NCBI GenBank assembly: GCA_001898145.1 | Contig: MKSR01000029.1 | Span: 1-64,000 of the forward strand | Source of the DNA: Dyadobacter sp. 50-39 | GTDB taxonomy: Bacteria; Bacteroidota; Bacteroidia; Cytophagales; Spirosomataceae | Direction: 5' to 3' | Length of the DNA stretch: 64,000 bases | Part shown: in pieces, positions 3,554 to 29,526 of the stretch | Layout: every line of letters starts with the position of its first letter | How positions within the stretch are numbered: the first letter of the stretch is position 1 | Notes under the pieces: model-generated | Seen by the model: the letters and a program-made list of their open reading frames with translations, nothing else | Database searches by the model: none | What the model was told of the DNA's origin: nothing | Made by a program: the position numbers and the translations under genes

Positions 3554-3555
3554 TT

Positions 3556-4107
3556 ATGAAGACAATATTCTTAGCGACAAACAATATTTATAAAGTTGAG
3601 GAGGTCGCACAGATCGGCATAACTTTCGGATATAACATCGAACAGTTTAAATGCGATATAAGAGAGCTGCAGACGTTGGACAGAGACAGGCTTATACGAC
3701 ATAAAACTGTTGAAGCATTCTCGCAACTACGAGGTCCAGTATTAGTTGACCACGCTTCCCTCGAGATTGACTGCCTCAACTCAATGCCAGGAACACTTAC
3801 GCAACTCTTCTGGGACAAGCTAGAAGGCACCATTTGCAATATAGTAACTGCCCTTGGACCTCGATCAGCGAAGGCAATCTGCACGGTAGGCTATTGTAAT
3901 GGAAAGAAAATCTTTAGTGATGAGTGTTCTGTCACTGGACTCATAGCTGATAAGCCGGAAGGAAATCGTAATTTTCAGTGGGATACAATATTTATTCCTG
4001 ATGGACAAACAAGAACATACGGCGAAATGACGATTACGGAAAAAAATGCAATCTCTCAGCGTAGACAGGCATTCGAAAATATGTTTGCCACAATTAACAA
4101 GTTATGA
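3556..4107 (+). CDS. HAM1/RdgB-like non-canonical purine NTP pyrophosphatase or sensor
   Basis: A 183-residue member of the ITPase/HAM1 fold. The N-terminus FLATNNIYKVEEV (5-17) is the (T/S)xNxxK substrate loop, VDHASLEIDCL (64-74) corresponds to the usual EDSGLxVDAL metal and base site, and the C-terminus has FQWDTIFIPDG, TYGEM and KNAISQRRQAF, typical of the family. Housekeeping RdgB hydrolyses dITP and XTP. In Kongming the HAM1 protein KomB binds dITP and activates the SIR2 partner instead. The Asp65-centred site has His-Ala in place of the usual Ser-Gly, so catalysis may be weakened. Placement between the SIR2 and RelA/SpoT-like genes suggests a nucleotide-sensing role. Confidence 0.85.
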   Translation: MKTIFLATNNIYKVEEVAQIGITFGYNIEQFKCDIRELQTLDRDRLIRHKTVEAFSQLRGPVLVDHASLEIDCLNSMPGTLTQLFWDKLEGTICNIVTALGPRSAKAICTVGYCNGKKIFSDECSVTGLIADKPEGNRNFQWDTIFIPDGQTRTYGEMTITEKNAISQRRQAFENMFATINKL

Positions 4108-5156: not shown

Positions 5157-5298
5157 AAGTACTGATAACAGTTATAAATAGCAGCTAAATAAATACAAAC
5201 AAGTTGGCCGATTGGCGTGCGCATACGAATTACATAAGTATATGATATTTTTATTGGATCAACATGGCAAATCGGTGAAGTACCACTAACTAAGTTAC

Positions 5299-5333
5299 AC
5301 CGTCTACAACGTTGAGTCTTCAAGACGGTTGTA
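5299..5333. terminator. Possible hairpin between convergent operons
   Basis: ACCGTCT at 5299-5305 pairs with AGACGGT at 5323-5329; an alternative pairing TACAAC/GTTGTA (5305-5310 with 5328-5333) shares the bases. A TTTTG tract follows on the + strand. It lies in the 437-base gap between two converging operons where a terminator is expected. The rest of 5157-5593 is AT-rich with nothing else I can identify. Confidence 0.35.
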
Positions 5334-5593
5334 TATTTTGTTTATGAGTTGCTACTGCTCATAGAGTATCAAAATTTCCTTTTTAGCATCTAGAAAGTTT
5401 TGTAAACCAAAATTGCTCCCAAGATTATTATCAGCCAATAGCGTCTAGTTAGCGCCAAAGGTTATTGCTCTATGCACAAGAAAATATTAAGCCAAACATT
5501 CAAAATTCCGTTTAAGCGATTTTGGTGTTCTTTTTCATTTTGGAACCTATCAAAAATGTTAGAAATATAAAAAAATAGCAAATATGCGGCGCC

Positions 5594-6793
5594 TTAGAAT
5601 ATTGTAAGCAACTTTTCCGAAATTGGGCTCCGGCTAACCAAATACTTTTCAAAGTCACAATCAAGGAGAAGGGGAAAATCTAAAAAGTGAGTTTGTTCCA
5701 AATTGTGGTTCTTGTAATACTTAATCTCTTCACCATCTAACTGATCTAAACATGTAATAACAAGACTCTTCGGAATATCGTTAGAAAAGGATTTGTCCGA
5801 TGCCAAAGCATAATTGAGATTTGCCAAATCAAGATAACCCTTCCTAAATGCGCCTTGGTGCTCGTTGCAAACATTGCTTTCATTTGTGTCGTTTACAAGC
5901 ACTAATTCCAAGCTTTCTCTGAAAGGACCGGCACCGTGCCTCGTCGCATAGCACCGTGTGATATAATATATTTCGATGTCAATCTCGGAGGGAATGTTAC
6001 GACTAATGATTTCCAACGCATTTCTAGAAGTTGTGTTACTTCGGGTAACATTTGGATAGAGACCAAAATCCATATCCAGCATAATACCTTGCGCTCCTTC
6101 AAATATGAGAGTATCCCAAGAGCACTCCGAGCCGAAAACATCCTTTGCACTCGCGAATCGGAGCTGACCTGCCTTTTTTAGTTCGTCCAATGTAATTATG
6201 CTGTCGATAAACTCTCCATCTGCCGTATCGTGATCAAAGTCATCAAACAAGAAATGTGTTTCGAGATGGATCTTCTTTCTGTAATAACGTCGAATAGCAG
6301 CAAGTTTTGTCTGTACTTTTCTTATTGAAGCCAAATCTTGAACTTCAAATCTAAGGTCTTTGAAAGTTTGTCTTTCAAGAGTTGCACCAAATCCAAGACC
6401 ACAGCTTCCATGCTTATCAGAACTTCGAAATGCCTCGACTGCCCTGTTGTATAAGATGTCATAATGTGTAGTGATCGGGCAAAGTAAATCGACTATTAGA
6501 GATGGGGTTATCGGCAGATGACTGATTTCTGTTAATACCCCTTCAGGAAAAAAAGTACAGAAATTAGACCAGTAAGTGGGAACACCTCTAAAGCTTCCAG
6601 CACCAAGGTTACAAAACACATGTGTCTTCCCATCCAAAGTGGATACAGTGTGACCAGCTTGATGCCCCCCGTTAAATCGGACTACTAATGGATTATTTGA
6701 ATTTAGACACAGATAGTCTGTAGTCAAGCCTTTGCCTTCGTCTCCATAGCCTAAACCAAGGACAATATAGGCATGTTTTCTTTCAGTACTCAT
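5594..6793 (-). CDS. Adenylosuccinate synthetase-like protein (divergent PurA)
   Basis: About 399 residues from the ATG at 6793, one base after the upstream stop; the longer frame to 6844 would overlap the fusion gene. PurA joins Asp to IMP using GTP. Conserved: GYGDEGKG (15-22) with catalytic Asp18, GGHQAGHT with His48 (E. coli His41), FEGAQG, and RHGAGPF. Changed: the arginine-rich aspartate loop TTGRRRRTGWLD reads HQGAFRKGYLD, the guanine-recognition TKLD reads TCLD, and the IMP loop TTGRGIGPAYEDK reads GSCGLGFGATLER. It is unlikely to be the housekeeping enzyme; it may act on another purine nucleotide, as phage PurZ does with dGMP. Keeping the catalytic Asp, which I recall PurZ having lost, argues for a 6-oxopurine without 2-amino group. 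Confidence 0.85.
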   Translation of the reverse strand: MSTERKHAYIVLGLGYGDEGKGLTTDYLCLNSNNPLVVRFNGGHQAGHTVSTLDGKTHVFCNLGAGSFRGVPTYWSNFCTFFPEGVLTEISHLPITPSLIVDLLCPITTHYDILYNRAVEAFRSSDKHGSCGLGFGATLERQTFKDLRFEVQDLASIRKVQTKLAAIRRYYRKKIHLETHFLFDDFDHDTADGEFIDSIITLDELKKAGQLRFASAKDVFGSECSWDTLIFEGAQGIMLDMDFGLYPNVTRSNTTSRNALEIISRNIPSEIDIEIYYITRCYATRHGAGPFRESLELVLVNDTNESNVCNEHQGAFRKGYLDLANLNYALASDKSFSNDIPKSLVITCLDQLDGEEIKYYKNHNLEQTHFLDFPLLLDCDFEKYLVSRSPISEKLLTIF

Positions 6794-6794
6794 C

Positions 6795-7970
6795 TCACCA
6801 AGAAGTCTGATAGATCGCTGTAGAGAAATCGGTTGTAATCTCACAGTCGGAACCTATCATCATTAATAAGTCATCCTTATGAACACTCTCTGATAGTATT
6901 ATCACTCTTTTATCTAGCGCCCTAGCGTATCCAATTTCGAAAAGTGTGCCTGCATCCAACCCATCTAAGATAGCCAAGATCACATCTGATTTTCGCAATC
7001 CTTCGAGATCTCTTGCCGCCACACTCTTCGTTTCGCCAAAGCCGACATCATGATAGGGTGAAAACACATCATTTCCAAACTCGAGCAAACAACGTCGCAC
7101 TTCATCTATAAGCCATCTTTGAGCCATATTGAAAAAAGGCCCAGCTAAATAAATTCGTCGCTTTTGTTTTTTACTAATTGCCAAACGCTTTTCTGGCTCT
7201 CCTAGCGGCAGTACTCTACTTTCACAATATTGTGCAGTATATGTAGAAGCAGTGTAGGCTGCTTCATAGGCTCCGACTCTTTCAACAGCCCACTTACACG
7301 CGAAAACTGCAGAAAATATATCGCCGGATCCAATAGGCCATACAGAGGCGGTTTTGAAAATTGGAATCTCATAAATGTTAGCACTATCAAATACCAGCGC
7401 TCCATGTGCTCCATTTTTTATCACTACAACCTCAGCCCTCTGCGTCTCCTGCAACTGTCTACCAATTTCCAGTAGATTAGAACCTTCTTCACCACCAGAG
7501 ATCATGAGTGCCTCGTTCTTATTTAGAACCAATGCAAGATGATTTGCTATTGACTTCGTGTCACCAAATGGTGCCCAATTTTGTGGATCGTAAATAACAT
7601 AGTCTCCTTTCACAGACACATCTGCTTCTATCATCCCATAATAGAGGACATTATCGGATGACACATCTGTCAGATGAAGACTTTCGCTCGAGTCGGAATA
7701 AGAAGATATTGGCGTTGAAAGTGGATGGTGGTAGCTAAAAGAAACCGTGTCTTTAATTTGAGTAAAGTCAGGAATAATATTGAAAGATTTACAGATAGCA
7801 GTTGCATCCTTGGCCATATCCTCACCAATTACACTATATAATTTTATGTCCGAGACAAAATTCGAAATTGATGCAGCTCCTCGCAACCCAGATCCATATA
7901 ATTCGAACCAGTACGGATCTGTACAAATTTCTAGATATGTTCCACCGACTACCGTCAAAGATCCGTTCAT
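6795..7970 (-). CDS. PfkB-type sugar/nucleoside kinase fused to nucleoside 2-deoxyribosyltransferase
   Basis: A 391-residue two-domain protein. Residues 1-265 are a ribokinase/PfkB domain (LTVVGGTYLE at the start, GSGDIFSAVFA at 214-224 with the catalytic Asp217). Residues 272-391 are a nucleoside 2-deoxyribosyltransferase-like domain: IYLAGPFFN (273-281), DVILAILDG (329-337) and the GTLFEIGYARA box (341-351) with the probable nucleophile Glu345. Such enzymes exchange bases between deoxynucleosides or hydrolyse dNMP (DNPH1-like). The kinase domain could phosphorylate the nucleoside or ribose produced or consumed. The start shares ATGA with the upstream gene behind an AGGAG site; PurA-like starts one base after its stop. 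The fusion suggests one pathway for an unusual deoxynucleotide. Confidence 0.82.
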   Translation of the reverse strand: MNGSLTVVGGTYLEICTDPYWFELYGSGLRGAASISNFVSDIKLYSVIGEDMAKDATAICKSFNIIPDFTQIKDTVSFSYHHPLSTPISSYSDSSESLHLTDVSSDNVLYYGMIEADVSVKGDYVIYDPQNWAPFGDTKSIANHLALVLNKNEALMISGGEEGSNLLEIGRQLQETQRAEVVVIKNGAHGALVFDSANIYEIPIFKTASVWPIGSGDIFSAVFACKWAVERVGAYEAAYTASTYTAQYCESRVLPLGEPEKRLAISKKQKRRIYLAGPFFNMAQRWLIDEVRRCLLEFGNDVFSPYHDVGFGETKSVAARDLEGLRKSDVILAILDGLDAGTLFEIGYARALDKRVIILSESVHKDDLLMMIGSDCEITTDFSTAIYQTSW

Positions 7971-8350
7971 CTCCTGTAGGGTTGAATAAGAACAGTGCAG
8001 GAAACCCGGCTCACGAATTCAACAACGGCTTCAAAGACGACTCCATTCCGTATACAGTTTATCAAGGTGTCTAATCTTGGATGGATGACGAATCCACATA
8101 CTTCTCCTTGCGAATTCAGCACCTCCACTCTATTACTGGATGCCGAAAACCTCACGAGGAGTAGATCGCCCTCATCAATAATTTGCAGCGCATTACTCTG
8201 AGGATCAGATAAAAGAACTTGAATTTGTACGTTTGCGCAATTATCCGAGGAACCTAACGATTCAGTTTTTTTTTGATTCGTTACCTTATTGGTGTAAGTC
8301 TTTTTGGCGCCACCACCGCCTTTCATGAATGTTGAATATGATTGGTACAT
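7967..8350 (-). CDS. Hypothetical protein in PurA/NDT operon
   Basis: 127 residues, not recognised. The first 35 residues are Gly/Lys/Ser/Thr-rich and look disordered (FMKGGGGAKK). Residues 40-127 alternate hydrophobic and polar positions, ending FEAVVEFVSRVSCTVLIQP, consistent with a small beta-barrel domain. No signal peptide or membrane segment. It lies five bases after the 85-residue protein and overlaps the kinase-transferase fusion by ATGA, so it is almost certainly co-translated with it. A binding or scaffold role is possible; nothing in the sequence indicates catalysis. Confidence 0.65.
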   Translation of the reverse strand: MYQSYSTFMKGGGGAKKTYTNKVTNQKKTESLGSSDNCANVQIQVLLSDPQSNALQIIDEGDLLLVRFSASSNRVEVLNSQGEVCGFVIHPRLDTLINCIRNGVVFEAVVEFVSRVSCTVLIQPYRR

Positions 8351-8613: not shown

Positions 8614-9652
8614 CTACAATAAATTTTATAAATGTTAGAGTTTCAGTTTAATTATAATGATTTTTACTGAAAGCTCTAAAATTTGCATGTTTGTAATCTA
8701 TACATCAAAAGAATGACTAGGCAGGCAGCTACCAAAAAATGTTATTTAACGGTAACACTCATGAATTAAGTTATTGAGATCAGCTCTTACATTATCTCTT
8801 GGTCATGACTAGATTTTTTGTTAACAAAGTCTGCTGCTACTTCCCTTCAATTTGCACTATTCCATCAAGCACTTTTCCCGCCAGAAGGATTATTGCTGCC
8901 CAGTAAATTCGCTCACCCATCTATATAGAGGGCATTTCAAGTAACTTGATATAATTAAAAATTGGGGAATATAATCTTTGTTTATAACTATTTCAATACT
9001 CCGGATGGACCTCAGACACGTAATGCATCAAAAACAGGAAGTATTATGCCGCAAGCATACTTAAACTAACGATGTCTTTCCTGAAGAACTCAGTACTATA
9101 AGAGGCCATTCCAACGAAGCGCTTCAAAAACGAGCACCCAAAGCAGCGATCGATAAACGGGGAGTATTACAGAATACTCTCAGAAGTATCCGCCCGGGGT
9201 AGTTTGACAGAATTTTGTTTTAAGGGCGGCTTGCAAAAATCAAGTTGCCATTAAAAATTATGTTTTCCCCAAAAGATCATTTTAAGAAAACTTAGAAAAT
9301 GGCTCCTACCGGCTTTTCACTCTCAAAAGCCAAGCGCACAGGAAGCCTTTATGCTGCTCTCAGACTAAATAGGCTTAAATACTCCAAGCAAAGCCCAGAC
9401 GGTCCTTCAAAGATGTGCCGTATAAACCCGAGCAGACCAACAGAATCGCCTAGCTAAGGCTGTGTTTCTAGCCAATAGCAGAGATTGTAAAATTTCCAAC
9501 TATCTCATTGCAATGAAAGTGATCGGAAACTCGACAAAGCCTATCAAATTTTCTGATCTTCAAATCTCCTTGAAGCCGTCAACAACCGCCCTCCTTACAG
9601 CTCACTTTGTTTGTATTTATCCATATCAATATGTAACTTATGGTTAAAAACT
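8614..9652. other. Long region without a convincing gene
   Basis: About 1 kb between the - operon and the mobilization module. A 61-codon frame at 9462 has no family signal and its end overlaps the next gene's leader. Short matches to the coding style of neighbours are absent, so it may be decayed DNA or a control region. I see no long repeat, tRNA or CRISPR here. Confidence 0.5.
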
Positions 9653-10411
9653 ATGCTACACTCCTATTTTAAAATCCGTGATCCGTGGAATTTCAAACCG
9701 CATCAATTTGAGATTGGTACGCCGCTCATCAGGAGCTCTTTTCACGACAATCATTTCTTTTTAAAGCTTTACGAGCTCAGAAAGGACGATTTCTCTGACT
9801 TTTACGATTTCCATCTTCGCCACTACCTTCAAAATGCCTCAGGCATTGAGAGTGATTTTCACAGCTACGTTTCTGATATCGTTTCAACGCGGATTGCACA
9901 ACTAAAGCTCATCGATCCGTTTTCCCGGAAAGCACTACGCGCGAAACAACAGACTGAGCGACTAAGAACATTCCAGACCTTTCTCCACTCGATCGACCAG
10001 TGGAGCTCCTCACAAACCCTAGAAGCCATTATTGCAGAAAACAACAAAGAAATCGTTGGGCTTAGACAGCAAATCACCGAGCTCAAAGATCAACTCGACG
10101 CACTTCGTCGTTATGAGACAAAGACCAAGATCGATATTCGCGACAAGCACCTCCCCACTTTCGTTCACCTCATCCATCAACTACAAGAGTTGACGCTTCC
10201 TGACGAGCGCAGGCTTTTCAACTTTCAGGAACAGAGCGCCTGGTACAAGCTGGTAAGTAAATATTTCACGCATGACCGGAAGCCGATCCCTATAGAGACA
10301 GCTCGTAACTATTTTCCCGTCCAGAAAGAAAAGACAAGCAAAGAAATTGAGGTCCCGGAGCGTTTACAGCTCTTTAAAATTATCCTGACTAGTCCAGAGC
10401 CAGGCTGCTGA
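9653..10411 (+). CDS. Hypothetical protein of mobilization module, coiled coil
   Basis: About 252 residues from the ATG at 9653 (the frame is open from 9611, but MLHSYFKIRDPWNF looks like the real start). Residues 115-165 form a coiled coil (IIAENNKEIVGLRQQITELK). Rich in charged helices, no signal peptide. Proteins like this often precede the helix-turn-helix gene in Bacteroidetes mobilizable elements, but I cannot name a family or function. The following HTH gene starts 106 bases later. Confidence 0.65.
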   Translation: MLHSYFKIRDPWNFKPHQFEIGTPLIRSSFHDNHFFLKLYELRKDDFSDFYDFHLRHYLQNASGIESDFHSYVSDIVSTRIAQLKLIDPFSRKALRAKQQTERLRTFQTFLHSIDQWSSSQTLEAIIAENNKEIVGLRQQITELKDQLDALRRYETKTKIDIRDKHLPTFVHLIHQLQELTLPDERRLFNFQEQSAWYKLVSKYFTHDRKPIPIETARNYFPVQKEKTSKEIEVPERLQLFKIILTSPEPGC

Positions 10412-10517
10412 TGACCAGCTGCTAAGTTTGGTCATTGGAATCAGCCTCCCCCAGTTCATTTTTGCAAGCAACCGGCAGACACTATGTCGGGACGTTTCAC
10501 AATAAACTTGCAGGACA

Positions 10518-10787
10518 ATGAACGTAGAGATGATCACCAGGGAGGATCTGCAAAATCTGAAAAATGAAATCATTGCAGAGCTCAAATCAATCCTTTCGCA
10601 GGATAAGCCAACGGATAGCACTTGGCTTAGGAGTGCCCAGGTAAGAAAGATGTTAAGCATTTCACCGGGCACCTTGCAGAACCTTCGCATCCAGGGACAC
10701 CTTCGCTTTACAAAGATCGGTGGATGCTTCTTTTACAGTCAGCGCGACATCGCCGCCATGCTCAACAAAAACGGCTCTAAGCGATGA
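10518..10787 (+). CDS. Helix-turn-helix DNA-binding protein, excisionase-like
   Basis: 89 residues. The N-terminal helix is followed by WLRSAQVRKMLSISPGTLQNLRIQGHLRFTKIGG... (residues 37 on), the HTH_17/MerR-like winged helix seen in excisionases and small regulators of Bacteroidetes mobile elements; FFYSQRDIAAML is the wing and last helix. Probably regulates the mobilization operon or directs excision. It overlaps the next gene by four bases (ATGA). Confidence 0.8.
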   Translation: MNVEMITREDLQNLKNEIIAELKSILSQDKPTDSTWLRSAQVRKMLSISPGTLQNLRIQGHLRFTKIGGCFFYSQRDIAAMLNKNGSKR

Positions 10788-11107
10788 AAGGACTCCCCGA
10801 TGCAAGTGCTGCCATGGACATGGCGGTACTTGAGGCCGTCAAATCCGATGACCGGCTGAACTCTTACCACATCAGCCTTTATACCGCGCTTCTATATTAC
10901 AGCAAAGGCATCAGACAACTCCCGTTTCATGCAAGCCGCAGAAAGTTGATGGGCTTTTCCAGGATCAAATCCGGAGCGACTTATCACAAATGTTTGCGGG
11001 AGCTGGTCAGCTACGGCTACCTGGACTATCATCCTTCTTTTCACCCGCAACAGGGCAGTCGTATAGTGTTGACCGCAACTACGGTTTCTTCGGATGATGA
11101 TCGATGA
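10784..11107 (+). CDS. Hypothetical protein, possible winged helix
   Basis: 107 residues, no named family. The middle (YHISLYTALLYYSKGIRQLP, then RKLMGFSRIKSGATYHKCLRELVSYGYLDYHPS) has the helix-helix-recognition helix-wing order of a winged helix, as in replication or plasmid-control proteins. It is coupled at both ends (ATGA with the HTH gene, 14-base overlap with the next). A regulatory or replication-accessory role is plausible only from context. Confidence 0.6.
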   Translation: MKGLPDASAAMDMAVLEAVKSDDRLNSYHISLYTALLYYSKGIRQLPFHASRRKLMGFSRIKSGATYHKCLRELVSYGYLDYHPSFHPQQGSRIVLTATTVSSDDDR

Positions 11108-11465
11108 GAAGCTGTTAATCGAGCTCTTCGAACAGAGAGACCGAAAACGCAGAGAGGCCCTATTTGAGCTTTTCCGAGAAGACCTTTTTGCCAATCTGAC
11201 ACGCGCCAGGATCGCGGATATAATCAGCGCCAAATTGGGCAGGCCAGGGCTTATAACAGCAGAAGATGTGCGCTACTGCCGGTTTTATTTCAAGGACAAA
11301 AAGACTGAGCGGATTCACAGGGCTGTGGAAAAGGCAATACGTAAGCCGGATCAATCGCAATACGCAGAAAGCAATCAACCCGACGCTTTCAAGGTGACCG
11401 ATCCGGATGAAATCAAACTAGAAGACCAATTTAAGTTCAAATCAAAGCATTCAACCAAACAATGA
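11094..11465 (+). CDS. Hypothetical protein of mobilization operon
   Basis: 123 residues, strongly charged. The N-terminal half is helical (LIELFEQRDRKRREALFELF), the C-terminal third is Lys/Asp/Gln-rich and probably disordered. No catalytic motif. It overlaps the preceding gene by 14 bases and the ParA-like gene by four, so it belongs to the same transcript. Function unknown. Confidence 0.55.
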   Translation: MMIDEKLLIELFEQRDRKRREALFELFREDLFANLTRARIADIISAKLGRPGLITAEDVRYCRFYFKDKKTERIHRAVEKAIRKPDQSQYAESNQPDAFKVTDPDEIKLEDQFKFKSKHSTKQ

Positions 11466-12160
11466 AGAAGCAATTTCATTTCATCGTGCAGGCCAAAGGC
11501 GGCGTAGGCAAAAGCCTGCATACCTATCTGAGGGCGCTTTCGGAAGCGGACAGTTTTTCCCTTTTTGTTGACCTTGACAGCTCAACAAAAACCTCATCCA
11601 GGCAACTCGCTTTTCTGGGACAAGATCGGTTTGAGGCTTTCTCCCTGCTTGACAATCGAGAAAGGTTAATGCGTGATCTATTCATTGGCTATGTGGAAAG
11701 TCTGGTAGAAAGCCCCTTCGAGAAAGTGTATATGGATTTCGGGGCTCCGGAAAGCGAGCAGTTGCCCGCACTGATCACTCGTGATATCGAGTTAAAGGAG
11801 TGGTGTGACGAGCTGGGCATTGAAGCCATATTCCATATCATCATCGGTGGTGGCGGAGCGTACCTGCCAAGCATACAGTTTCTGGAAAAGATGAGAGCAG
11901 CATTAAGGTCGAAATTTGAGATCGTGATATGGCAAAACCTCTTTGGCTTTAATCAGTTTCCAGGCTTGTCCAAAGAGCTCGAAGACAACTGCACCGCACT
12001 CGGACTTGACCTGAGACGCTTCGGCGACTTTGAGCCAGCATCACTTTTGGGAGGACAGATTCTCGACGGCATCCGCAATGGCTATTCGCTGAAAGACTAT
12101 CCACCAGGCGCAAGGCTCAGACTGAGAAAGGAACTCAAAGAGAATTTCAGCGATGAATAG
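11462..12160 (+). CDS. ParA/MinD-like P-loop ATPase
   Basis: 232 residues. The deviant Walker A motif AKGGVGKS is at residues 11-18 and SLFVDLDSSTKTSS follows as the switch I/A' segment. The rest is shorter and more divergent than chromosomal ParA. Such ATPases in mobilizable plasmids and islands act in partition or help deliver the relaxosome (MobB/VirC1-like). It starts in an ATGA overlap with the previous gene and ends eight bases into the next. Confidence 0.8.
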   Translation: MKKQFHFIVQAKGGVGKSLHTYLRALSEADSFSLFVDLDSSTKTSSRQLAFLGQDRFEAFSLLDNRERLMRDLFIGYVESLVESPFEKVYMDFGAPESEQLPALITRDIELKEWCDELGIEAIFHIIIGGGGAYLPSIQFLEKMRAALRSKFEIVIWQNLFGFNQFPGLSKELEDNCTALGLDLRRFGDFEPASLLGGQILDGIRNGYSLKDYPPGARLRLRKELKENFSDE

Positions 12161-12677
12161 CCCGGAACCCAACCGTCTTACTCAGACCAGGGGTAAGTAT
12201 GCGGCCAAGTATGGTCACGAGATCGATGACTGGTCAGCCCTGTTTCTGACTGAAACCCAGGAGCATTTTCAAAGCCTGGAAATCCGGGTGGGAAAATCCA
12301 TCGCAGCCATCGACCGGGCCGCATTGGAGCTGAAAGGCAGGAAACGGTTCTTGCAGTTTCAAGACCGGGGCCAGGCCCTATTCTACGGTTTGGGTGTAAG
12401 CGCTCCTTATTCAATCGCAGGCATAGTCATATCTGTTTTGTTCTATGTATTGATACGCCATGGTCAGCAGTATGTAGAGCGGCAAAGAATTTTGGACGAG
12501 TACCAAAATGCGCCAGCTTACAGGATGATCATGGAGCAAGGAAAAATCGTCGAGTACAATAAGATGCTGTACCTGCAACTAACGCCTTTACCTAAAAAGG
12601 GGAAAGTCCAGATCGGTGAGCACTACATCTACGACTCCCAGGGCAAACGTGTGCTGGTTCCGCTAGGGGCCGAATAG
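12153..12677 (+). CDS. Membrane-anchored mobilization-operon protein
   Basis: 174 residues with one membrane segment near residues 88-108 (SIAGIVISVLFYVLI). The N-terminal part is soluble and helical and the C-terminal part ends in a beta-like YIYDSQGKRVLVPLG. Known Bacteroidetes mobilization operons often carry a small single-pass protein between the ParA-like and MobC genes, but I cannot name the family. It may link the relaxosome to the membrane. Confidence 0.6.
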   Translation: MNSPEPNRLTQTRGKYAAKYGHEIDDWSALFLTETQEHFQSLEIRVGKSIAAIDRAALELKGRKRFLQFQDRGQALFYGLGVSAPYSIAGIVISVLFYVLIRHGQQYVERQRILDEYQNAPAYRMIMEQGKIVEYNKMLYLQLTPLPKKGKVQIGEHYIYDSQGKRVLVPLGAE

Positions 12678-12810: not shown

Positions 12811-12837
12811 GCTGTGGTTTTCTCCCTAGCCAGCTAT

Positions 12838-12894
12838 CGCCGGTACGTCGCAAAATGCGACTCCCCGGCGGAGCTGGCCAGGAGAAACCCCTGG
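12838..12894 (+). other. Candidate oriT hairpins
   Basis: CGCCGG (12838-12843) pairs with CCGGCG (12865-12870) and encloses GTCGCA (12847-12852) pairing with TGCGAC (12856-12861). A second small stem CCAGG/CCTGG lies at 12878-12882 and 12890-12894. The structures are right after the phased repeats and 46 bases before the MobC-like ATG, the normal place for an origin of transfer. The nick site cannot be located by eye. Confidence 0.55.
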
Positions 12895-12939
12895 ACCCCT
12901 GCTATTCGCCTCCGGCTCATAGCTAATCAAAAAAGACAT

Positions 12940-13599
12940 ATGGAAAATCAGAAAACGAAAGGCAGACCACCCAAACAGAAGGGGACTGTCAAAAGGGAAC
13001 ACTTTTCAGTCTGGGTGAGCGCTGACCAGAAAACCCAGATCAATCAGATCATAGAGAAAAGCGGGCTCTCTGCCAGTCAGTATTTCTTGACATTGGCGCT
13101 GGACGTTCCATTTAAAAAACCGCAAAAAAGATCGCTTCCAAAACAGGTCGCCGACACAGTCCGAATATTGGAACAGCTCTCGGGCATCTTGTCGCTGGCA
13201 GTTTTAAAGACTAAAGATCAACAGATGCTTTCTGCTCAATGGCAACAGAGCAGTCAGCGTGTCCGCTTACTCGCTGACCTTATTACCTTATGGGTATTTG
13301 AATCCTTTGAGATCCGCAGCATAAAGCAGACGCTTGGCAGCCTGCGTTCCTGGTTAAATGAGCTGACCAACTTTTTGTCGCTATTTCCTGACGAGCTCGA
13401 AAGCAAGCAGCAACTTATTGAAGAGTGCCGGTCGAACGCTCGGCTGGCAAGTGACCTGCGCGATAAATACGAAGCCTACTATCGAGCCCCACTATCAGAA
13501 CTAGAACGGGCTTGGAAAGCAGTGAACGCAGACGCCAGCTCAGTGCATCACGAGATTGAAAGTGCGCTTGCCACATTACTTAAAATGATGAAGACATGA
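12940..13599 (+). CDS. MobC-like relaxosome accessory protein
   Basis: About 219 residues from ATG 12940; an open GTG frame reaches back to 12814 but runs through the oriT-like hairpins, so the ATG is preferred. KGRPPKQKG is a basic arm, and HFSVWVSADQKTQINQIIEKS followed by GLSASQYFLTLAL is a ribbon-helix-helix of the MobC type; the remaining helical region resembles the Bacteroidetes MobC family (DVPFKKP, then several helices). It should bind oriT and help the relaxase nick. It overlaps the relaxase gene by four bases. Confidence 0.75.
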   Translation: MENQKTKGRPPKQKGTVKREHFSVWVSADQKTQINQIIEKSGLSASQYFLTLALDVPFKKPQKRSLPKQVADTVRILEQLSGILSLAVLKTKDQQMLSAQWQQSSQRVRLLADLITLWVFESFEIRSIKQTLGSLRSWLNELTNFLSLFPDELESKQQLIEECRSNARLASDLRDKYEAYYRAPLSELERAWKAVNADASSVHHEIESALATLLKMMKT

Positions 13600-14441
13600 T
13601 TGGGAAAGCAAGTTTGGGCAGTAGCGCCAAAAGGCTTATCGAGTACTGCTACTACGATAAACAGGTTTCGGCGAAAATGCAAAGAAAGCTGGATACGGAA
13701 GAAGTCCGTGGAGAACTGGTCTACATACAGAACCTGGGAATTAAAATACAGCCAGATGGAAAACTAGACCTGGACTACCTGATTAAACAATTTGAAGATA
13801 ACCACTCGCGGAATACGCAGCTGACCAAATACGTCTGGCATCAATCGTTTAGCTTCGCGCCAGGTGAAAGCCCCAGCAGCGAGACCATAGCCAGCATTAC
13901 TACTGAGTTTGCCAAGGAGTTTGGGTTTGAACAGAATCAAATGCTTGTTTTCAAGCATGAGGATACCGGTAATCGCCATTTCCATATCGTTGCAAACCGG
14001 CTCAACCACAATGGGAAAAATACAGCCGATCACTTTAAGAACTACGCCCGGATCGGGACTTTCTCTCGCAAAATGGAGCATAAACTGGGGTTAGTTCAAG
14101 CACCTGATATGCGCATCAATCAGCGAAGGACACAGGAACTATCAGTTACCGACCATGCACATTCGAAGCTAATACAGGCGATTGACAAGCTATTAGATAG
14201 TGTAAAATCTATTGCCGAGCTTAAAAAAGAACTCGTAAGTGTCGGATATAAATCTTACATCGGGCGCGGCATTGCATTCTTTAATATACAGAAGAAAATT
14301 AAGATCAAGGGCTCTGATTTAGGCCGTGACTATTCGCTTTCTTATCTTGAAAAGCGGTTGGCTCAAAATTTGGAAATTGGCCTTAAAAAAGAACTAAAAC
14401 CGGATTTAAAAAAGCAGAAAAAACGCGGTTTGGGTTTATAG
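13596..14441 (+). CDS. HUH relaxase / mobilization nuclease (MobA-like)
   Basis: 281 residues. The N-terminus MIGKASLGSSAKRLIEYCY carries candidate nucleophilic tyrosines (Tyr17, Tyr19, Tyr20). Metal-binding histidines are in KHEDTGNRHFHIVANR: His121, His128 and His130. This is the MOBP/Bacteroidetes relaxase arrangement. The protein nicks oriT and pilots the strand during conjugal mobilization, using a helper's type IV secretion system since no such genes are seen here. The C-terminus after residue 190 is basic and probably helps DNA binding. Confidence 0.9.
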   Translation: MIGKASLGSSAKRLIEYCYYDKQVSAKMQRKLDTEEVRGELVYIQNLGIKIQPDGKLDLDYLIKQFEDNHSRNTQLTKYVWHQSFSFAPGESPSSETIASITTEFAKEFGFEQNQMLVFKHEDTGNRHFHIVANRLNHNGKNTADHFKNYARIGTFSRKMEHKLGLVQAPDMRINQRRTQELSVTDHAHSKLIQAIDKLLDSVKSIAELKKELVSVGYKSYIGRGIAFFNIQKKIKIKGSDLGRDYSLSYLEKRLAQNLEIGLKKELKPDLKKQKKRGLGL

Positions 14442-14496
14442 ATGCAGGTTTTCGTAAAGAATAGCCTATTTTAGCCAAAAATAACCCATTACACCC

Positions 14497-14970
14497 ATGA
14501 AATTGAAAGCAATTAAATTCTTTTCCCCGGAGGAAAACCTCTCTAAAACCAAAGTGGTCGAAAAGGCTCCACCGCTTCCGACAGGTTACATATCTAATTC
14601 CGGCAAGCTTGTTTTCCCAGCGTCAGCGCTACGCGACCTGGGGATTGATCCGGAATCTACCCATTTCAAAATTGGAACCCAGGAAGGCAAGCGAAAAATT
14701 AAATCCGTATATCTTGTTCCGGCAGCAGGTTCCGATCAAACTTTTTCCTTCGAGAAAAGTGGCAGAGGCCATGTAATTCCATTGGCGCTTATTCTGAAAA
14801 AAGGTAACGTCAACTTCAAAAGCGAAAAACTGATTTTCAAGATTTCCACCTTTGACTTTGATCAAACTACGAAAGGCTATGAACTCGCGATCGAAACTGA
14901 AGCGCCAAAACCTGAGTATACCGGAAAGCCCCGTGGCAGAAAGCCTAAGGATGCGGCTGATGCGGAATAA
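14497..14970 (+). CDS. Hypothetical protein with C-terminal AT-hook
   Basis: 157 residues. The central region (SGKLVFPASALRDLGIDPESTHFKIG, in parts) resembles an AbrB-like strand-helix pattern, and the tail has GKPRGRKPKD near residues 142-151, a classical AT-hook (RGRKP) that would bind the minor groove of AT-rich DNA. It follows the relaxase after 55 bases. Its stop lies only 15 bases before the hairpin that ends the opposing transcription unit. Function unknown; a nucleoid or element-specific DNA-binding protein is plausible. Confidence 0.65.
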   Translation: MKLKAIKFFSPEENLSKTKVVEKAPPLPTGYISNSGKLVFPASALRDLGIDPESTHFKIGTQEGKRKIKSVYLVPAAGSDQTFSFEKSGRGHVIPLALILKKGNVNFKSEKLIFKISTFDFDQTTKGYELAIETEAPKPEYTGKPRGRKPKDAADAE

Positions 14971-15010
14971 AAACACTAAAAAATGCAGGTAACCTGGACC
15001 GGTTACCTGC
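14971..15010 (-). terminator. Intrinsic terminator for sigma/TnpB-like/ncRNA unit
   Basis: GCAGGTAACC (14985-14994) and GGTTACCTGC (15001-15010) form a perfect 10-bp stem with a 6-base loop. Reading the - strand the stem is followed by ATTTTTTAGTGTTTTT (14984 down to 14969), a good T tract. On the + strand no T tract follows. It therefore terminates transcripts coming from the TnpB-like gene and the structured RNA downstream of it. Confidence 0.85.
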
Positions 15011-15133
15011 CTCAATATCGGGTCACGTTTGCTTACCGTTAATTAAGCTAACCCAGTTGTATGTGCCCCTTGGCACTTAGTGAAACCGCCAGTGGTTTCA
15101 CCCTGCGGCTGTACAAGCAGCCTCTGTGAAAAT
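15011..15133 (-). ncRNA. Candidate guide RNA: three consecutive hairpins after TnpB-like gene
   Basis: Immediately after the TnpB-like stop, the - strand can form three successive stem-loops: 15118-15122 with 15107-15111 (GGCTG/CAGCC), 15094-15101 with 15080-15087 (GTGAAACC/GGTTTCAC, eight perfect pairs), and 15072-15076 with 15063-15067 (GTGCC/GGCAC). About 50 unstructured bases (15062-15011) follow, then a strong terminator. TnpB and Cas12f use a scaffold RNA overlapping or following the gene, with the guide at the 3' end; the unstructured 3' part could hold the guide. The folding is seen in the sequence; the guide function is inference. Confidence 0.65.
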
Positions 15134-16225
15134 TCATTCTACCAGCACAGCAATCCCAATCTTTACGGCTTTGCGCTCGATCTTTTGTTTGAGGCCGTAA
15201 TATCCCCAGTTCCTGAAAAGGAAAGGATCTTCCTTTGCTTGCTGCTCCTTATCTGTCTGGTCTACGAGCAGCAAAGTCGCTGCTTTATTTTTAAGGCATA
15301 TATCAATTAACCTCTTACTGTATACGTGCTGCTTGTGGGAGACATATCGCTTCTCTGATTGTATCAGCTGATCGATGCTCGTTTTTCGGAGCTGCCTTCG
15401 ACCGTTTTGGTTCATGAAGGGCATTGCTTTTCTTTTCCGCCGGATGGCGGCCTGGATAGCGAGCCTCTTGTATAGATACTCGTCTTTGCTTCCGATCGTA
15501 TAACGTTTGTTGCCGACTGAAACGATGATCGGGTAATCTAGCGACAAGCTTGCCTCAGCAATGATATCCTGGTCAAGCGGCTGCTCCTGCCGTTCTGTCT
15601 GAAAAACAGCAAGCATAAAAATCTTTCCTTTGTCAAGCACCAGTGAGCTGGTGCAAAGCTTTACCTGGCCAGCGAGTAATCTTTGGAGCATCTCGCGCTT
15701 GTCATGGCCTGTTTTTCCCAGGTATGTCCTGAACGGAAACTCGAATAACGAAAAGTGAAACACTGCCCCTTCTTTGCTGCTTCTTAGCTTCTTGACATCG
15801 GTTCCTTTAAACGGGATCGGGATTTCTTTTCTGAAACTGGGTAAGGCGCTTTCGCCAGTAGCAAGCGCCTTGCTCATCTTGTTGAAACTGGCAACCAGAT
15901 TTCCATTCAAGGCGCTCATGACGTGCATTGGAACACTGCCCTTATAGTTTTGGGCAAGTACCTGATAGCTCGTGTTCATCCGTGACGTAGAAAGCATCCC
16001 GTATTCGTCCTTTTTGATGTCAGAAAGCTTGGCCTTTACACCCTCAGTCAGATAGAGCAATTCTCTGAGCTGCTGCTGGACGTAATGGTGGGTAAAGATT
16101 TGGTTGGCAGCTTTAAAACAGATGTATCGCCATTGGTAGAGCGTATCCAAAATAATATTCTTCTGATCGATGTCGTCCGAATCGATCAAGAGCCGGATCT
16201 TCCGGGTAGTGAAAAGCTTTTCCAT
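15134..16225 (-). CDS. TnpB/Cas12f-like protein, probably nuclease-dead
   Basis: 363 residues. The N-terminal half has the TnpB/Cas12f pattern ending ALPSFRKEIPIPFK (127-140). The RuvC region is recognisable: SLSLDYPIIVSVG (226-238, Asp230 at the RuvC-I position), the helical KRKAMPFMNQNGRRQLRK bridge, and LLLVDQTD (318-325) where the RuvC-II Glu is Val321. FRNWGYYGLKQKIERKAVKI (338-357) is the helix before the zinc finger, but the protein stops there: no zinc finger and no RuvC-III Asp. It should therefore bind but not cut DNA, like TldR or dCas12f proteins. It starts three bases after the sigma factor gene, so the two are coupled. No TnpA or IS ends are visible. Confidence 0.75.
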   Translation of the reverse strand: MEKLFTTRKIRLLIDSDDIDQKNIILDTLYQWRYICFKAANQIFTHHYVQQQLRELLYLTEGVKAKLSDIKKDEYGMLSTSRMNTSYQVLAQNYKGSVPMHVMSALNGNLVASFNKMSKALATGESALPSFRKEIPIPFKGTDVKKLRSSKEGAVFHFSLFEFPFRTYLGKTGHDKREMLQRLLAGQVKLCTSSLVLDKGKIFMLAVFQTERQEQPLDQDIIAEASLSLDYPIIVSVGNKRYTIGSKDEYLYKRLAIQAAIRRKRKAMPFMNQNGRRQLRKTSIDQLIQSEKRYVSHKQHVYSKRLIDICLKNKAATLLLVDQTDKEQQAKEDPFLFRNWGYYGLKQKIERKAVKIGIAVLVE

Positions 16226-16228
16226 GAT

Positions 16229-17020
16229 CTATCGCCCATTTTGTTTCCAATGATTTTTGACAAGCTGATATGCTTTGATATAGTGCTGCTGTACCTTGGT
16301 TTGCGGATAGCCTAGCATAGAGGCGATGTCAGCAAAAGACTTCCTCTGATCTTGCCTGAGCTCGAACACCTCAGCTTGCTCGCTACTTAGAATATGATCG
16401 TAAGGGAACGGCTGCTTTGCTTGCCTTATAGGCACAGTCGCGCGGGGCGCTACCATTCTTTTAAGCTCCTCCACCGCTTTTTGGATTTCGCTAGTAACAT
16501 GCAGCGTACTGGCTCCTATTCTTTTCGCCACCTCCCGTGGACTATGCCCATCCTGGAAGTGAAGGCTGGCTATCAACTGGCGTTGTTTGGGAAGAAATGT
16601 GATCGCTTTCGAGATTTCATTCCACCTTCTCCCCTCAGTGCCGTCCGCGAAGTAGCTGTCCAAATCTGGCTTTTCTCCCAGGAAAGGTTCTAAGTGGTCT
16701 ATTTCAGTCATTTTCCGGTATATCTGGTATGAGGGCTTTTGGACCTGTTTCAAGAGTTGCCAACGGAGATTAAGGCGGATAAATCGGTATGCATGAGGCA
16801 GGCTTTCTATCTTGTCACGGTGTGCCCAAACTTTCAGGTAACATTCCTGCAGGATGCAGCTCACTAGGAACTCGTCGTTGACCAGACCTCTACCAAGGTA
16901 AAGCAGGCTATCATAAGTCCGCTTGTAAAAATAACTGAGCGCACGCTCATCACCGCTGCGGAAAAGCAGCAGGTATTGCTCGTTGCGTGCCGACGTTCTA
17001 GCGAGTTCATGAAGTGCCAT
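16229..17020 (-). CDS. ECF-like RNA polymerase sigma factor with two C-terminal HTHs
   Basis: 263 residues from ATG 17020; an in-frame TTG at 17083 would add a leader of 21 residues but is less likely. Residues 15-90 are sigma region 2 (ALSYFYKRTYDSLLYLGRGL and LQECYLKVWAHRDK). Residues 136-190 are a region 4 helix-turn-helix (FLPKQRQLIASLHFQDGHSP). Residues 208-258 repeat the pattern (LSSEQAEVFELRQDQRKSFA, then DIASMLGYPQTKVQQHY), so region 4 seems duplicated. It is directly upstream of the TnpB-like gene. Nuclease-dead Cas12f homologues paired with sigma factors are reported to drive RNA-guided transcription in Bacteroidetes; this pair fits that scheme. Confidence 0.82.
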   Translation of the reverse strand: MALHELARTSARNEQYLLLFRSGDERALSYFYKRTYDSLLYLGRGLVNDEFLVSCILQECYLKVWAHRDKIESLPHAYRFIRLNLRWQLLKQVQKPSYQIYRKMTEIDHLEPFLGEKPDLDSYFADGTEGRRWNEISKAITFLPKQRQLIASLHFQDGHSPREVAKRIGASTLHVTSEIQKAVEELKRMVAPRATVPIRQAKQPFPYDHILSSEQAEVFELRQDQRKSFADIASMLGYPQTKVQQHYIKAYQLVKNHWKQNGR

Positions 17021-17147
17021 AGCATTGACAACAATTTGGACCAACAATACAAAATGGTGCTTACACTCTACGGATGCCGACAATCATTCCCCTGCAAATC
17101 GTTAGGTGGACGATTGTTGAAACAAATATATCGAAAGTTACCAAAAG

Positions 17148-17161
17148 ACACACATGTGTGT
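17148..17161. promoter_or_regulatory. Palindromic operator candidate between divergent regulators
   Basis: ACACACATGTGTGT is a perfect 14-bp palindrome in the 179-base gap between the divergent sigma factor gene and the XRE-family gene, 39 bases before the latter's ATG. It is a plausible binding site for the XRE protein, controlling itself and the sigma/TnpB-like unit. Confidence 0.5.
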
Positions 17162-17199
17162 ACTGAAAATTTTTAGGCTTCCCGTACTTCGTCCCAAGC

Positions 17200-17445
17200 A
17201 TGAAGGACCAAGAAAACATCGGCAGAATCGAACAGTATGTAATCGATTACGTAAGGGAACTACGTGTGAGTAACAATTTACTTCAAGAGGACATCGCCAC
17301 CATCCTTGGAACCACGAAGGCATTTATAAGTAATGCGGAAAGCACCAATCATCGGGCCAAGTATAATCTCAAACACATTGATAAGCTAGCTCATTATTTC
17401 AATCTTTCTCCAAGGGATTTTTTACCAGAGAGGACCTTACAATAA
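17200..17445 (+). CDS. XRE-family HTH regulator
   Basis: 81 residues, mostly one helix-turn-helix: LRVSNNLLQEDIATILGTTK and AFISNAESTNHRAKYNLKHI, then LAHYFNLSPRDFLPE, the standard Cro/C1 domain. It is transcribed away from the sigma factor gene across a shared control region with a palindrome. It is the natural candidate for controlling the sigma/TnpB-like unit, or may be the controller of the adjoining restriction-like operon. The gap to the next gene (17446-17879) holds no recognisable gene. Confidence 0.85.
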   Translation: MKDQENIGRIEQYVIDYVRELRVSNNLLQEDIATILGTTKAFISNAESTNHRAKYNLKHIDKLAHYFNLSPRDFLPERTLQ

Positions 17446-17879
17446 ACACGTTATGCTCGGCTCATAACTATAAATTACCTTGGCACGTCTTTCGTCGCGC
17501 CCATCAAAACCAACTGCTAACCGTCAGAACATATCGGCCTAAACGAAACTAATGTCGAGTCAGTTTTTCGTCGGGTAATCTTTATGGCACTCCCGCAACT
17601 TCGGAGTAAAAGTTGAAGAAGCCGAACAGCACCGGCAATCGTTTTGCAATCCCAAATCTGGCTAGGGGCGGAAGGCAGCGGCCTAGCAGTCATCGGTATT
17701 GACAGCGGCTTGGGCGACCAATTGCCATGCAATTGTGTGGATCCATCCCCAACGAATTCAGAACGAACCTCAGGCACAACTGAATAGATATGAGACAGCT
17801 TTACAAAGGGAATTTTCTTCGTCAAAAAACAGTTAAAAATCCTTGCTGGGAAAAACAATTGATCGCTTCTTTTTTGCTT

Positions 17880-18317
17880 ATGGCTGATGTGCATACAACT
17901 GAAGTACGTAGTTATAATATGTCGCGAATTCGTGCAAAGGATACCAAGCCAGAGCTTATGGTGAGACGGTTTTTGTTTTCACAGGGCTTTCGCTATCGAC
18001 TTCACGACAAGAAATTGAAAGGGAAGCCGGATATAGTATTGTCGAAGTATAAAACCGTAATTTTTATTCACGGTTGTTTTTGGCACGGCCATGAGGGATG
18101 CAGATACTTTGTTGTGCCTAAGACGCGCTCAGAATGGTGGGTGGATAAGATAAACACGAATAAAAGCAAGGACAAAGTGGCATTCAAGGAGTTGACAGAT
18201 AAAGGATGGAAGGTGCTTACAATTTGGGAATGTGAGCTTAAGCAGAAGGCCTTGAAGGACACGTTCGGAAGGCTGCTGCAAAACTTGATTGACAACGAAG
18301 AAATTGCTAACAGTTAG
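17880..18317 (+). CDS. vsr: Very short patch repair endonuclease (Vsr)
   Basis: 145 residues from ATG 17880 (open frame back to 17790). HTTEVRSYNMSRIRAKDTKP is the family start; YRLHDKKLKGKPDIVL holds the catalytic Asp, VIFIHGCFWHGHEGCRYFV the zinc and active-site His/Cys, and KDKVAFKEL with VLTIWECEL the end. Vsr nicks T:G mismatches left by deamination of 5-methylcytosine, so it normally accompanies a C5 methyltransferase, here 35 bases downstream. Confidence 0.92.
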   Translation: MADVHTTEVRSYNMSRIRAKDTKPELMVRRFLFSQGFRYRLHDKKLKGKPDIVLSKYKTVIFIHGCFWHGHEGCRYFVVPKTRSEWWVDKINTNKSKDKVAFKELTDKGWKVLTIWECELKQKALKDTFGRLLQNLIDNEEIANS

Positions 18318-28713: not shown

Positions 28714-28775
28714 AACCGCAGGACGCGGGAAGGACATCGGTAGATCGTGATCAGTGCAAACGAAAGTTACAAAGT

Positions 28776-28968: not shown

Positions 28969-29526
28969 ATGAGAAATCTCGAAAATGCTCCAAGAATCTA
29001 TGTGGGAACCTATGGTCAGTACAACAATGGATCGCTGTTTGGTAAATGGTTTGACCTTACAGACTACTCAGATCTAAAAGATTTCCTGCAAGACTGCCAC
29101 GAGTTTCATCGTAATGAATTCGATCCGGAGCTTATGTTTCAAGACTGGGAAAACATCCCGGATTTTTTGATATCGGAATGCAGCCTTCACAAAGAAGCGT
29201 TCACCTACTTTAAGGCCACATATGATATGGACGGTGAGACTGCCGAAGCACTCGACATTTACTGCAAACAGATTAACTATTGGCCATCCAACGGGTACGA
29301 ATTAGATGACCAACTTGAAGGATTCCGAGAAAGCTACCAGGGGTTCTTTGGAGGCTCTGGGAAAGATGCTACACTTGAATACACTTACCAATATGTCGAA
29401 GAGACGGGACTGCTGTCAGACGTGCCGTCCACGCTCGAAAAATACTTCGACTATGAAGCCTTCGCCAGAGACCTGTTTTTAGGTGGATACAGCGAATATG
29501 AAGGTCATGTTTTCATAGACTACTAA
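28969..29526 (+). CDS. ardA: ArdA-like antirestriction protein
   Basis: 185 residues, acidic. The N-terminus PRIYVGTYGQYNNGSLFGKW is the family hallmark, followed by ELMFQDWENIPDFLISE, matching the second ArdA block. ArdA mimics B-form DNA and blocks type I restriction enzymes, helping an incoming element. It is preceded by a large inverted repeat and followed by a cluster of palindromes. Its presence on an island that also carries a restriction-like operon suggests the two serve entry and later protection respectively. Confidence 0.9.
   Translation: MRNLENAPRIYVGTYGQYNNGSLFGKWFDLTDYSDLKDFLQDCHEFHRNEFDPELMFQDWENIPDFLISECSLHKEAFTYFKATYDMDGETAEALDIYCKQINYWPSNGYELDDQLEGFRESYQGFFGGSGKDATLEYTYQYVEETGLLSDVPSTLEKYFDYEAFARDLFLGGYSEYEGHVFIDY

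What the first reader, a model, noticed from the sequence alone, without database searches (positions are those of the whole stretch)
15134..17020. Sigma factor coupled to a nuclease-dead TnpB/Cas12f-like protein: candidate RNA-guided transcription system
A sigma factor gene is followed after three bases by a TnpB/Cas12f-like gene that lacks the RuvC-II Glu, the zinc finger and RuvC-III. Known from memory: TldR proteins are nuclease-dead TnpB repressors, and dCas12f homologues paired with ECF sigma factors recruit RNA polymerase by guide RNA in Bacteroidetes. Here it is carried by a mobilizable island, which would let it retarget host or plasmid genes.
Basis: partly seen in the sequence, partly recalled or inferred. 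Interest (0 to 1): 0.93.

Follow-up and report, generated by a model that had tools for sequence, protein, structure and literature searches.

The report
Mobile RNA-guided sigma-factor gene switch
A transferable island in a Dyadobacter-type bacterium carries a dead CRISPR-like protein, its guide RNA and a sigma factor, a set known from related bacteria to switch genes on where the guide points; guides of related islands point at genes for nutrient uptake in the outer membrane.

Summary
The 363-aa protein matches the solved 'Nuclease-deactivated Cas12f' 9n9c (E 8e-109), the sigma factor 'RpoE' of the same complex 9n9q (E 1e-31): the known dCas12f-sigmaE RNA-guided transcription system. New here: (1) the guide RNA gene behind dcas12f (scaffold 15056-15124, guide from 15055, minus strand), its fold backed by two-sided changes in 12 of 18 pairs; (2) the set is backbone of mobilizable islands in Dyadobacter (12 of 48 genomes, up to 3 copies); (3) guides of relatives match, behind a G, one arm of a structured element not found in Rfam, upstream of SusC-SusD operons: first 12 bases in two genomes, 15 of 16 in another; (4) in the window's clade these operons lie beside conjugation genes (7 of 7 loci). 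Against: the window's guide agrees with its own genome's element only over six bases plus a gapped stretch, and three clade-mates agree over four. Verdict: an RNA-guided transcription system by sequence, a new variant; its target here is probable, not shown.

The parts
16229..17020 (-). sigmaE gene (263 aa), ECF type with a second, C-terminal region-4-like stretch
   Evidence: phmmer to 9n9q_C RpoE 1.4e-31 over residues 19-257
15134..16225 (-). dcas12f gene (363 aa), nuclease-dead Cas12f
   Evidence: phmmer to 9n9c 7.9e-109 over residues 5-362; RuvC-I column Ser226, RuvC-II column Val321, C-terminus missing; PADLOC Cas12f 9e-42
15056..15124 (-). guide RNA scaffold: three hairpins ending ATACAAC
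   Evidence: alignment A5 of 21 scaffolds, 18 pairs, 95.5% of cells paired, 12 pairs with changes on both sides, 0 of 500 shuffles as high
15041..15055 (-). guide, conserved 15-base core (a 20-base guide would reach 15036)
   Evidence: 0 of 15 columns vary in 10 aligned copies against 19 of 70 in the scaffold and 15 of 31 downstream (two of the ten copies were found by this 15-mer)
15020..15035 (-). stretch complementary to the guide; the transcript is predicted to fold the guide into a hairpin
   Evidence: strand folding: whole RNA z -4.94; the 48-base piece alone z -1.23, 23 of 200 shuffles fold as well; inference only
14978..15010 (-). terminator-like hairpin and T run ending the guide RNA gene
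   Evidence: sequence; predicted 10-pair stem; stem conserved in A4
17148..17161 (.). perfect palindrome ACACACATGTGTGT between the XRE gene and the sigma gene, candidate operator
   Evidence: sequence; also before sigma in L004, L088, L090; role inferred
17200..17445 (+). XRE-type HTH regulator, divergent from sigma
   Evidence: PF01381 4e-6; homologues near the element in L213 and L215 (40-43%)
14497..14970 (+). backbone ORF of unknown function, convergent with the guide RNA gene
   Evidence: no family; 82-95% in all seven of L004-L010
13596..14441 (+). MobA/MobP-type relaxase
   Evidence: PF03432 7.5e-28; NF041893 1e-28, below its cut-off
12814..13599 (+). mobilization accessory protein (NikA/MobC-like)
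   Evidence: PF21983 1.7e-6
9611..12677 (+). rest of the backbone: ORF 9611, HTH_17 excisionase-like 10518, ORFs 10784 and 11094, ParA-like 11462 (by eye; no Pfam match), 12153
   Evidence: HTH_17 1.8e-9; all six present in L004, L005, L008, L009; part of them in L006, L007, L010
118..780 (+). tyrosine integrase, at the start of the contig
   Evidence: PF00589 7.3e-16
28969..29526 (+). ArdA antirestriction gene, recurring in these islands
   Evidence: PF07275 6.3e-30; in 6 of the 7 loci L004-L010
17790..27808 (+). cargo: Vsr, cytosine methylase and MzaB-E-type defence genes
   Evidence: PADLOC MzaB 2.9e-46, MzaC 1.8e-91, MzaD 5.3e-11, MzaE 6.4e-57, Vsr 4.8e-35

Best explanation
It is a dCas12f-sigmaE RNA-guided transcription system carried as a core module of a mobilizable island. 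Sigma, dcas12f and guide RNA lie in one direction and are probably read together. dCas12f binds the guide RNA, finds a site that matches the guide next to a G, opens the DNA there without cutting, and holds the sigma factor so that RNA polymerase starts a fixed distance downstream without an ordinary promoter. In this family the site is one arm of a structured element upstream of a TlpA-SusC-SusD or SusC-SusD operon, so the island switches on an outer-membrane uptake operon elsewhere in the cell, in the window's clade one that sits beside conjugation genes. Shown here by sequence: the protein identities, the lost active site, the guide RNA gene and its fold, island carriage, and guide-to-element matches in relatives. 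Inferred: binding, recruitment and activation (from the solved homologous complex and recalled work), and that the window's own imperfect match is enough.
For: Both partners match one solved complex. Guide RNA scaffold: 12 of 18 pairs with two-sided change, 95.5% paired against 84.0% in shuffles. Model R2 finds guide RNAs in 17 of 54 genomes, 28 of 29 matches just behind dcas12f (the other is contig C41 of this genome), and in none of 36 Dyadobacter genomes without dcas12f (presence in 15 of the 17 is by construction of the model, and stricter filters applied). Sites with a G before the match: G046 and G038, first 12 of 12 guide bases; G718, 15 of 16 at two sites, one before its own sigma gene and one before SusC; G706, 11 of 12; G022, 11 of 12; G008's second guide, first 9; G014 and G020 with one bulged base. 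Of 24 element matches 16 lie upstream of SusC/SusD genes and 2 upstream of sigma-dcas12f. Element fold: 14 of 31 pairs with changes on both sides, 0 of 500 shuffles. True guide-element pairs beat permuted ones, P 0.022 by score and 0.0064 by seed length (relatedness not corrected). For the related repressor TldR a 6-base guide suffices (PMC13418256, passages).
Against: The window's guide has no exact 14-base site in its genome outside guide RNA genes, and none of the sites with up to two mismatches over 16 bases lies in an element. Its best element site (G000:C37:5816) agrees over TGGGTT and then only with a gap (score 10, reached by 0.04% of random G sites, about 60 sites per element being open to choice). 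In G009, G017 and G044 the element's arm agrees only at TGGG and around CTTA, and in G017 and G044 another site of the element scores best. G698's scores are no better than chance, and its 8-base match before sigma follows a C, not a G. First guides of G008 and second guides of G014, G046 and G038 do not fit their own genome's element well. Three of 18 carriers have no detectable element. The guide is predicted to fold on itself. No expression data.
Confidence: 0.85

Rival explanations
1. Same machine, but the window clade's guide points at a target not present in these genomes (another allele of the element in other hosts); in this genome it idles.
For: The exact 15-mer occurs in 48 Dyadobacter genomes only in guide RNA genes and once in G006, where model R1 finds no element. 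Clade-2 islands carry two guides that fit two element alleles found in different hosts.
Against: The guide is kept letter for letter although the target would often be absent; TldR tolerates natural mismatches and needs only 6 bases.
Confidence: 0.35
2. TldR-like repressor: dCas12f blocks transcription at the element and the sigma factor acts elsewhere.
For: The protein is a dead TnpB/Cas12f; the guide site lies inside a leader-like element that transcription from an upstream promoter would cross (inference).
Against: A sigma homologue lies just upstream of dcas12f in 25 of 27 relatives compared (the exceptions are L012, a partial gene, and L086, 28% alike), and both proteins match one solved complex.
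Confidence: 0.07
3. CRISPR-type immunity or a decayed nuclease.
For: PADLOC names the protein Cas12f/Cas12u3; the island carries defence genes.
Against: No array in 13500-18000; both RuvC columns changed and the C-terminus lost; 88% protein against 82% DNA identity to the C48 copy, as under selection for the protein.
Confidence: 0.03
4. The 3' sequence is a structural hairpin, not a guide; its likeness to the element is shared ancestry of two RNAs.
For: In clade 1 the guide can pair with a conserved downstream stretch.
Against: Guides lie in three registers along the element in different genera and each still starts right after a G (Dyadobacter; G718 and G292; G706); guide and element alleles agree in G046, G038 and G008.
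Confidence: 0.1

Closest known systems
dCas12f-sigmaE RNA-guided transcription system (PDB 9n9c, 9n9m, 9n9o, 9n9q; the papers are recalled, not read)
   Same: Both proteins; guide RNA gene beside dcas12f; G as target-adjacent base and SusC/SusD-type targets (both recalled for the known system)
   Different: Carried by mobilizable islands in several copies per genome, guide conserved across islands, two guide RNAs in one clade, target within a structured element, in the window's clade beside conjugation genes; whether any of this is already described I could not check
TldR, TnpB-like nuclease-dead repressors (PMC13418256, start of abstract and passages seen)
   Same: Dead TnpB-family protein with its own guide RNA, carried by a mobile element and aimed at a host surface-structure gene
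   Different: TldR represses; a sigma partner is not part of it (recalled); this protein is nearer to Cas12f
Cas12f (type V-F) nucleases, e.g. 9nzo, 9nzr
   Same: Homologous protein (1e-25); scaffold like Cas12f guide RNAs (recalled)
   Different: Catalytic columns and C-terminus missing; no array; single fused guide RNA

Membership tests
dCas12f-sigmaE RNA-guided transcription | Nuclease-dead Cas12f homologous to the solved dCas12f | tested here: met
   7.9e-109 over residues 5-362; catalytic columns Ser226, Val321
dCas12f-sigmaE RNA-guided transcription | Adjacent ECF sigma homologous to the partner in the complex | tested here: met
   1.4e-31 to 9n9q_C, three bases between genes
dCas12f-sigmaE RNA-guided transcription | Guide RNA gene beside dcas12f | tested here: met
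   expression not tested
dCas12f-sigmaE RNA-guided transcription | Guide matches a G-flanked site upstream of a target operon | tested here: inconclusive
   Met in G046, G038, G718, G706; partial in G022, G008, G014, G020 and the window's genome; not in G009, G017, G044, G698; G037's guide could not be read
dCas12f-sigmaE RNA-guided transcription | Guide-dependent recruitment of RNA polymerase | not testable with these tools
   needs an experiment
TldR | Dead TnpB without sigma partner, repressing | tested here: not met
   sigma partner present; Cas12f models and chains score far above the TnpB model; repression itself not tested
Type V-F CRISPR | CRISPR array and active RuvC | tested here: not met
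   only three two-copy repeats of 73-75% identity in 13500-18000; RuvC columns lost
Integrative and mobilizable element | Relaxase and integrase, no conjugation machinery of its own | tested here: inconclusive
   relaxase and integrase present; no TraD, E, F or G homologue in the window; but the island's ends were not determined and the contig starts at the window's first base

The most novel reading that the evidence does not exclude
A mobilizable island uses RNA-guided transcription to switch on an outer-membrane operon carried by the conjugative element it needs for its own transfer: RNA-guided control of one mobile element by another, with islands of a second clade carrying two guides to cover two alleles of the target.
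Probability: 0.25. Interest if true: 0.88.

Novelty: new variant of a known kind. Interest (0 to 1): 0.66.

Why it matters
It points to a natural, CRISPRa-like activator travelling on mobilizable islands, with a predicted guide, target element and regulated operon that can be tested directly. It would extend the idea, known from TldR phages, that mobile elements use dead guide-RNA proteins to remodel the host surface, from repression to activation, and tie it to conjugative elements. The structured element at the target, not found in Rfam 15 in my searches, is a new handle on how SusC/SusD operons are controlled.

Tried and rejected
Target searches with the window's guide in its genome and genus gave guide RNA genes and scattered near-matches outside any element; I judged most of those to be coding by eye and did not check the reading frames of all. 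A TGGATTAGCTT upstream of sigma in four copies has a C before it and was dropped. A target before ardA was looked for by eye and not seen. Near-matches in three Dyadobacter genomes beside a ribosomal-protein-like gene, GTGGGTTCTTCTTATT, are not in an element and were dropped. An alternative switch helix GGCGTGG-CCACGCC in the element is no better than shuffles (201 of 500). Rfam found nothing above gathering scores in the window and nothing for the element or its neighbours (one chance-level Fibrobacter-1 hit inside a coding gene, E 1.7). Plasmid and phage collections hold no relative at E 1e-10. Paper searches aimed at this system listed no paper on it in the held library (listings only; one review, PMC12857756, holds the terms and was not read). 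Searches were side searches; of all papers only PMC13418256 was opened, and only passages of it. Alignment A6 leaves out 2 of the 24 element matches, the weak L150 and L155. Model R1 was built from seven elements first found by guide likeness, so elements in G718, G698, G706, G000 and G038 are there by construction; 10 of the other 13 carriers have one. In one search the background sites were not cleared of guide RNA genes and elements.

Full report
What is there. On the minus strand a sigma gene (16229-17020) is followed after three bases by a 363-aa gene (15134-16225). phmmer against the PDB gives 'Nuclease-deactivated Cas12f' 9n9c at 7.9e-109 over residues 5-362, then other Cas12f/TnpB-type chains from 1e-25 down; the sigma gives 'RpoE' 9n9q_C at 1.4e-31 as its only hit below 0.001. 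9n9q is in both lists, so both genes match partners of one solved complex. Against Cas12f chain 9nzo_B the RuvC-I Asp column holds Ser226 and the RuvC-II Glu column Val321, and the last 92 residues of that chain have no counterpart (the identity of the catalytic residues is recalled). NCBIfam and PADLOC agree on TnpB/Cas12f kinship; Pfam finds no family.

The guide RNA. Directly behind dcas12f lies a 69-base scaffold (15056-15124) ending ATACAAC, then the guide, then a terminator-like hairpin. I aligned 21 such scaffolds from Dyadobacter and other genera: 18 pairs in three hairpins, 95.5% of cells paired (shuffles 84.0%), 12 pairs with changes on both sides, 0 of 500 shuffles as high; sliding the partner drops pairing to 29-43%. 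A model of it (R2) finds guide RNAs in 17 of 54 genomes: 17 of the 18 dcas12f carriers given (not G037, whose two copies are cut by contig ends) and none of 36 other Dyadobacter genomes. In 15 of the 17 this is by construction, since the model was built from them; the run used stricter filters. Of the 29 matches 28 lie just behind dcas12f; the other, on contig C41 of this genome, follows an integrase gene. No CRISPR array was found nearby.

Distribution and island. Relatives of dCas12f: 12 of 48 Dyadobacter genomes, up to three copies each, in an 86-94% group (with the window) and a 58-65% group; 4 of 390 genomes drawn from the order (E 1e-20) and 6 of 395 from the class (E 1e-30), own genome included. 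Nine of ten loci fetched from named records are Dyadobacter, 88-94% alike; the tenth is a partial gene in Longitalea, 53%. So the organism is most likely a Dyadobacter. In all seven loci L004-L010 the pair lies with the relaxase, the mobilization protein and ORF 14497; the six further backbone genes are all present in four (L004, L005, L008, L009) and in part in the other three, which reach less far or differ; cargo differs. In the other Dyadobacter clade five loci (L087-L090, L092) have a second guide RNA behind the first, and L091 a rough one. The window's copy carries Mza-type genes, Vsr, AbiE and ArdA.

The guide and its target. The 15 bases after ATACAAC are identical in the window and in L004-L010, found by protein, and in two more copies found by this 15-mer (0 of 15 columns vary; scaffold 19 of 70; next 31 columns, 15). 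Scanning loci with their own guides gave, in G718, a site 15 of 16 upstream of sigma; the same site recurs upstream of a SusC gene. It is one arm of a structured element of about 130-180 bases. From seven copies I built model R1. It finds the element in 16 of 24 genomes given: 15 of 18 carriers (G041, G492, G662 lack it) and 1 of 6 other Dyadobacter; two of the 24 matches are weak (G022 E 0.003, G008:C19 E 0.02). The fold is backed by covariation in 22 copies (31 pairs, 92.2% of cells paired against 84.2%, 14 pairs with both sides changed, 0 of 500 for both; the number of further pair types is not unusual, 67 of 500). It is not in Rfam by my searches.

Of the 24 element matches, 16 lie upstream of SusC/SusD genes, most with TlpA as well, in the direction of the guide; 2 lie upstream of sigma-dcas12f itself (G718, G698); one (G015) shows no TlpA, SusC or SusD in 19 kb; 5 (four of G698, one of G008) were not followed beyond 1.5 kb. 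Pfam confirms thioredoxin-like, TonB plug and SusD domains in this genome's C37 operon. Guide against the homologous arm: G046 and G038, first 12 of 12; G718, 15 of 16; G706, 11 of 12 in another register; G022, 11 of 12 with the mismatch at base 7; G008's second guide the first 9, and G046's second guide the first 12 of G008's element; G014 and G020 with one bulged guide base; G292, 7 and then a mismatch block; this genome (C37), 6 and then a gap; G009, G017 and G044 only TGGG and around CTTA; G698 no better than chance, with a C before its 8-base match. G037 has the same arm as G009, but its guide could not be read. This genome's second element (C7) does not fit. Second guides of G014, G046 and G038 and the first of G008 do not fit their own element well. 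In the good cases the base before the match is G, which is the target-adjacent base I recall for this system. Among 10 Dyadobacter genomes true guide-element pairs score higher than permuted pairs (P 0.022 by score, 0.0064 by seed), without correction for relatedness.

Conjugation genes. A block of TraD, TraE, TraF and TraG homologues begins 0.9-4.3 kb from the element in 8 of the 16 SusC/SusD loci (both of this genome's, G044, G014, G022, G009, G017, G037) and about 14 kb away in G008; none was found in the sequence held at G046 and G038 (57 kb each), G020 (two loci, one near a contig end), G292, G718 and G706 (about 19 kb or less each) (queries were this genome's proteins, so distant ones could be missed). 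All seven loci of the window's clade are among the eight. In G009 the neighbours include TraG, J, K, M, N and MobC above their cut-offs and MobB below its cut-off. So in this clade the candidate target operon looks like cargo of a conjugative element. Whether that element is the helper of the island is untested.

How it probably works. By homology to 9n9q and recalled work: dCas12f with guide binds the G-flanked site, and the sigma it holds brings RNA polymerase, which starts downstream. Direction fits: the guide reads toward the operon in the 16 SusC/SusD loci. In the window clade the raw transcript is predicted to fold the guide against a conserved downstream stretch (whole RNA z -4.94; the 48-base piece alone z -1.23), so trimming or competition by the target may be needed; this is inference. 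The TldR study reports that guides of 6 bases suffice and that natural mismatches are tolerated (PMC13418256, passages), which makes the window's weak match possible but does not show it.

Judgement. As a dCas12f-sigmaE system: near certain by sequence. Target class for the family: likely. Target of the window's own guide: open. I call it a new variant because of island carriage, paired guides and the structured target; I could not read the primary papers to see whether these are already described (searches).

Noticed in passing
L031 (G000:C41) 380-1220: A guide RNA gene sits directly behind an integrase gene; the junction keeps the last codons of dcas12f, and dcas12f and sigma are not there.
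   Followed up: partly
window about 28750-28900; also upstream of ardA in L004, L006-L010 and L033: A conserved stretch with inverted repeats precedes ardA, reminiscent of the single-strand promoters known (recalled) before antirestriction genes of conjugative elements. Judged by eye.
   Followed up: no
L135-L158, e.g. G000:C37:5753-5880: Structured noncoding element upstream of SusC/SusD operons, several with a divergent XRE gene; no Rfam match; function unknown apart from holding the guide sites.
   Followed up: partly
guides in L095, L097, L087, L084 and the window clade against their elements: The mismatch or bulge between guide and element falls at about the same place, just before CTTA, in several genera.
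   Followed up: no
window 2154-8350: Cargo with a SIR2-like gene (PADLOC ThsA 1.7e-27) and, by eye, kinase-like, HAM1-like and adenylosuccinate-synthetase-like genes; possibly a nucleotide-based defence cluster.
   Followed up: no
G000:C48:3-983 and G000:C12:1-975: Two more dcas12f copies of this genome run off contig ends, so their guides could not be read.
   Followed up: partly
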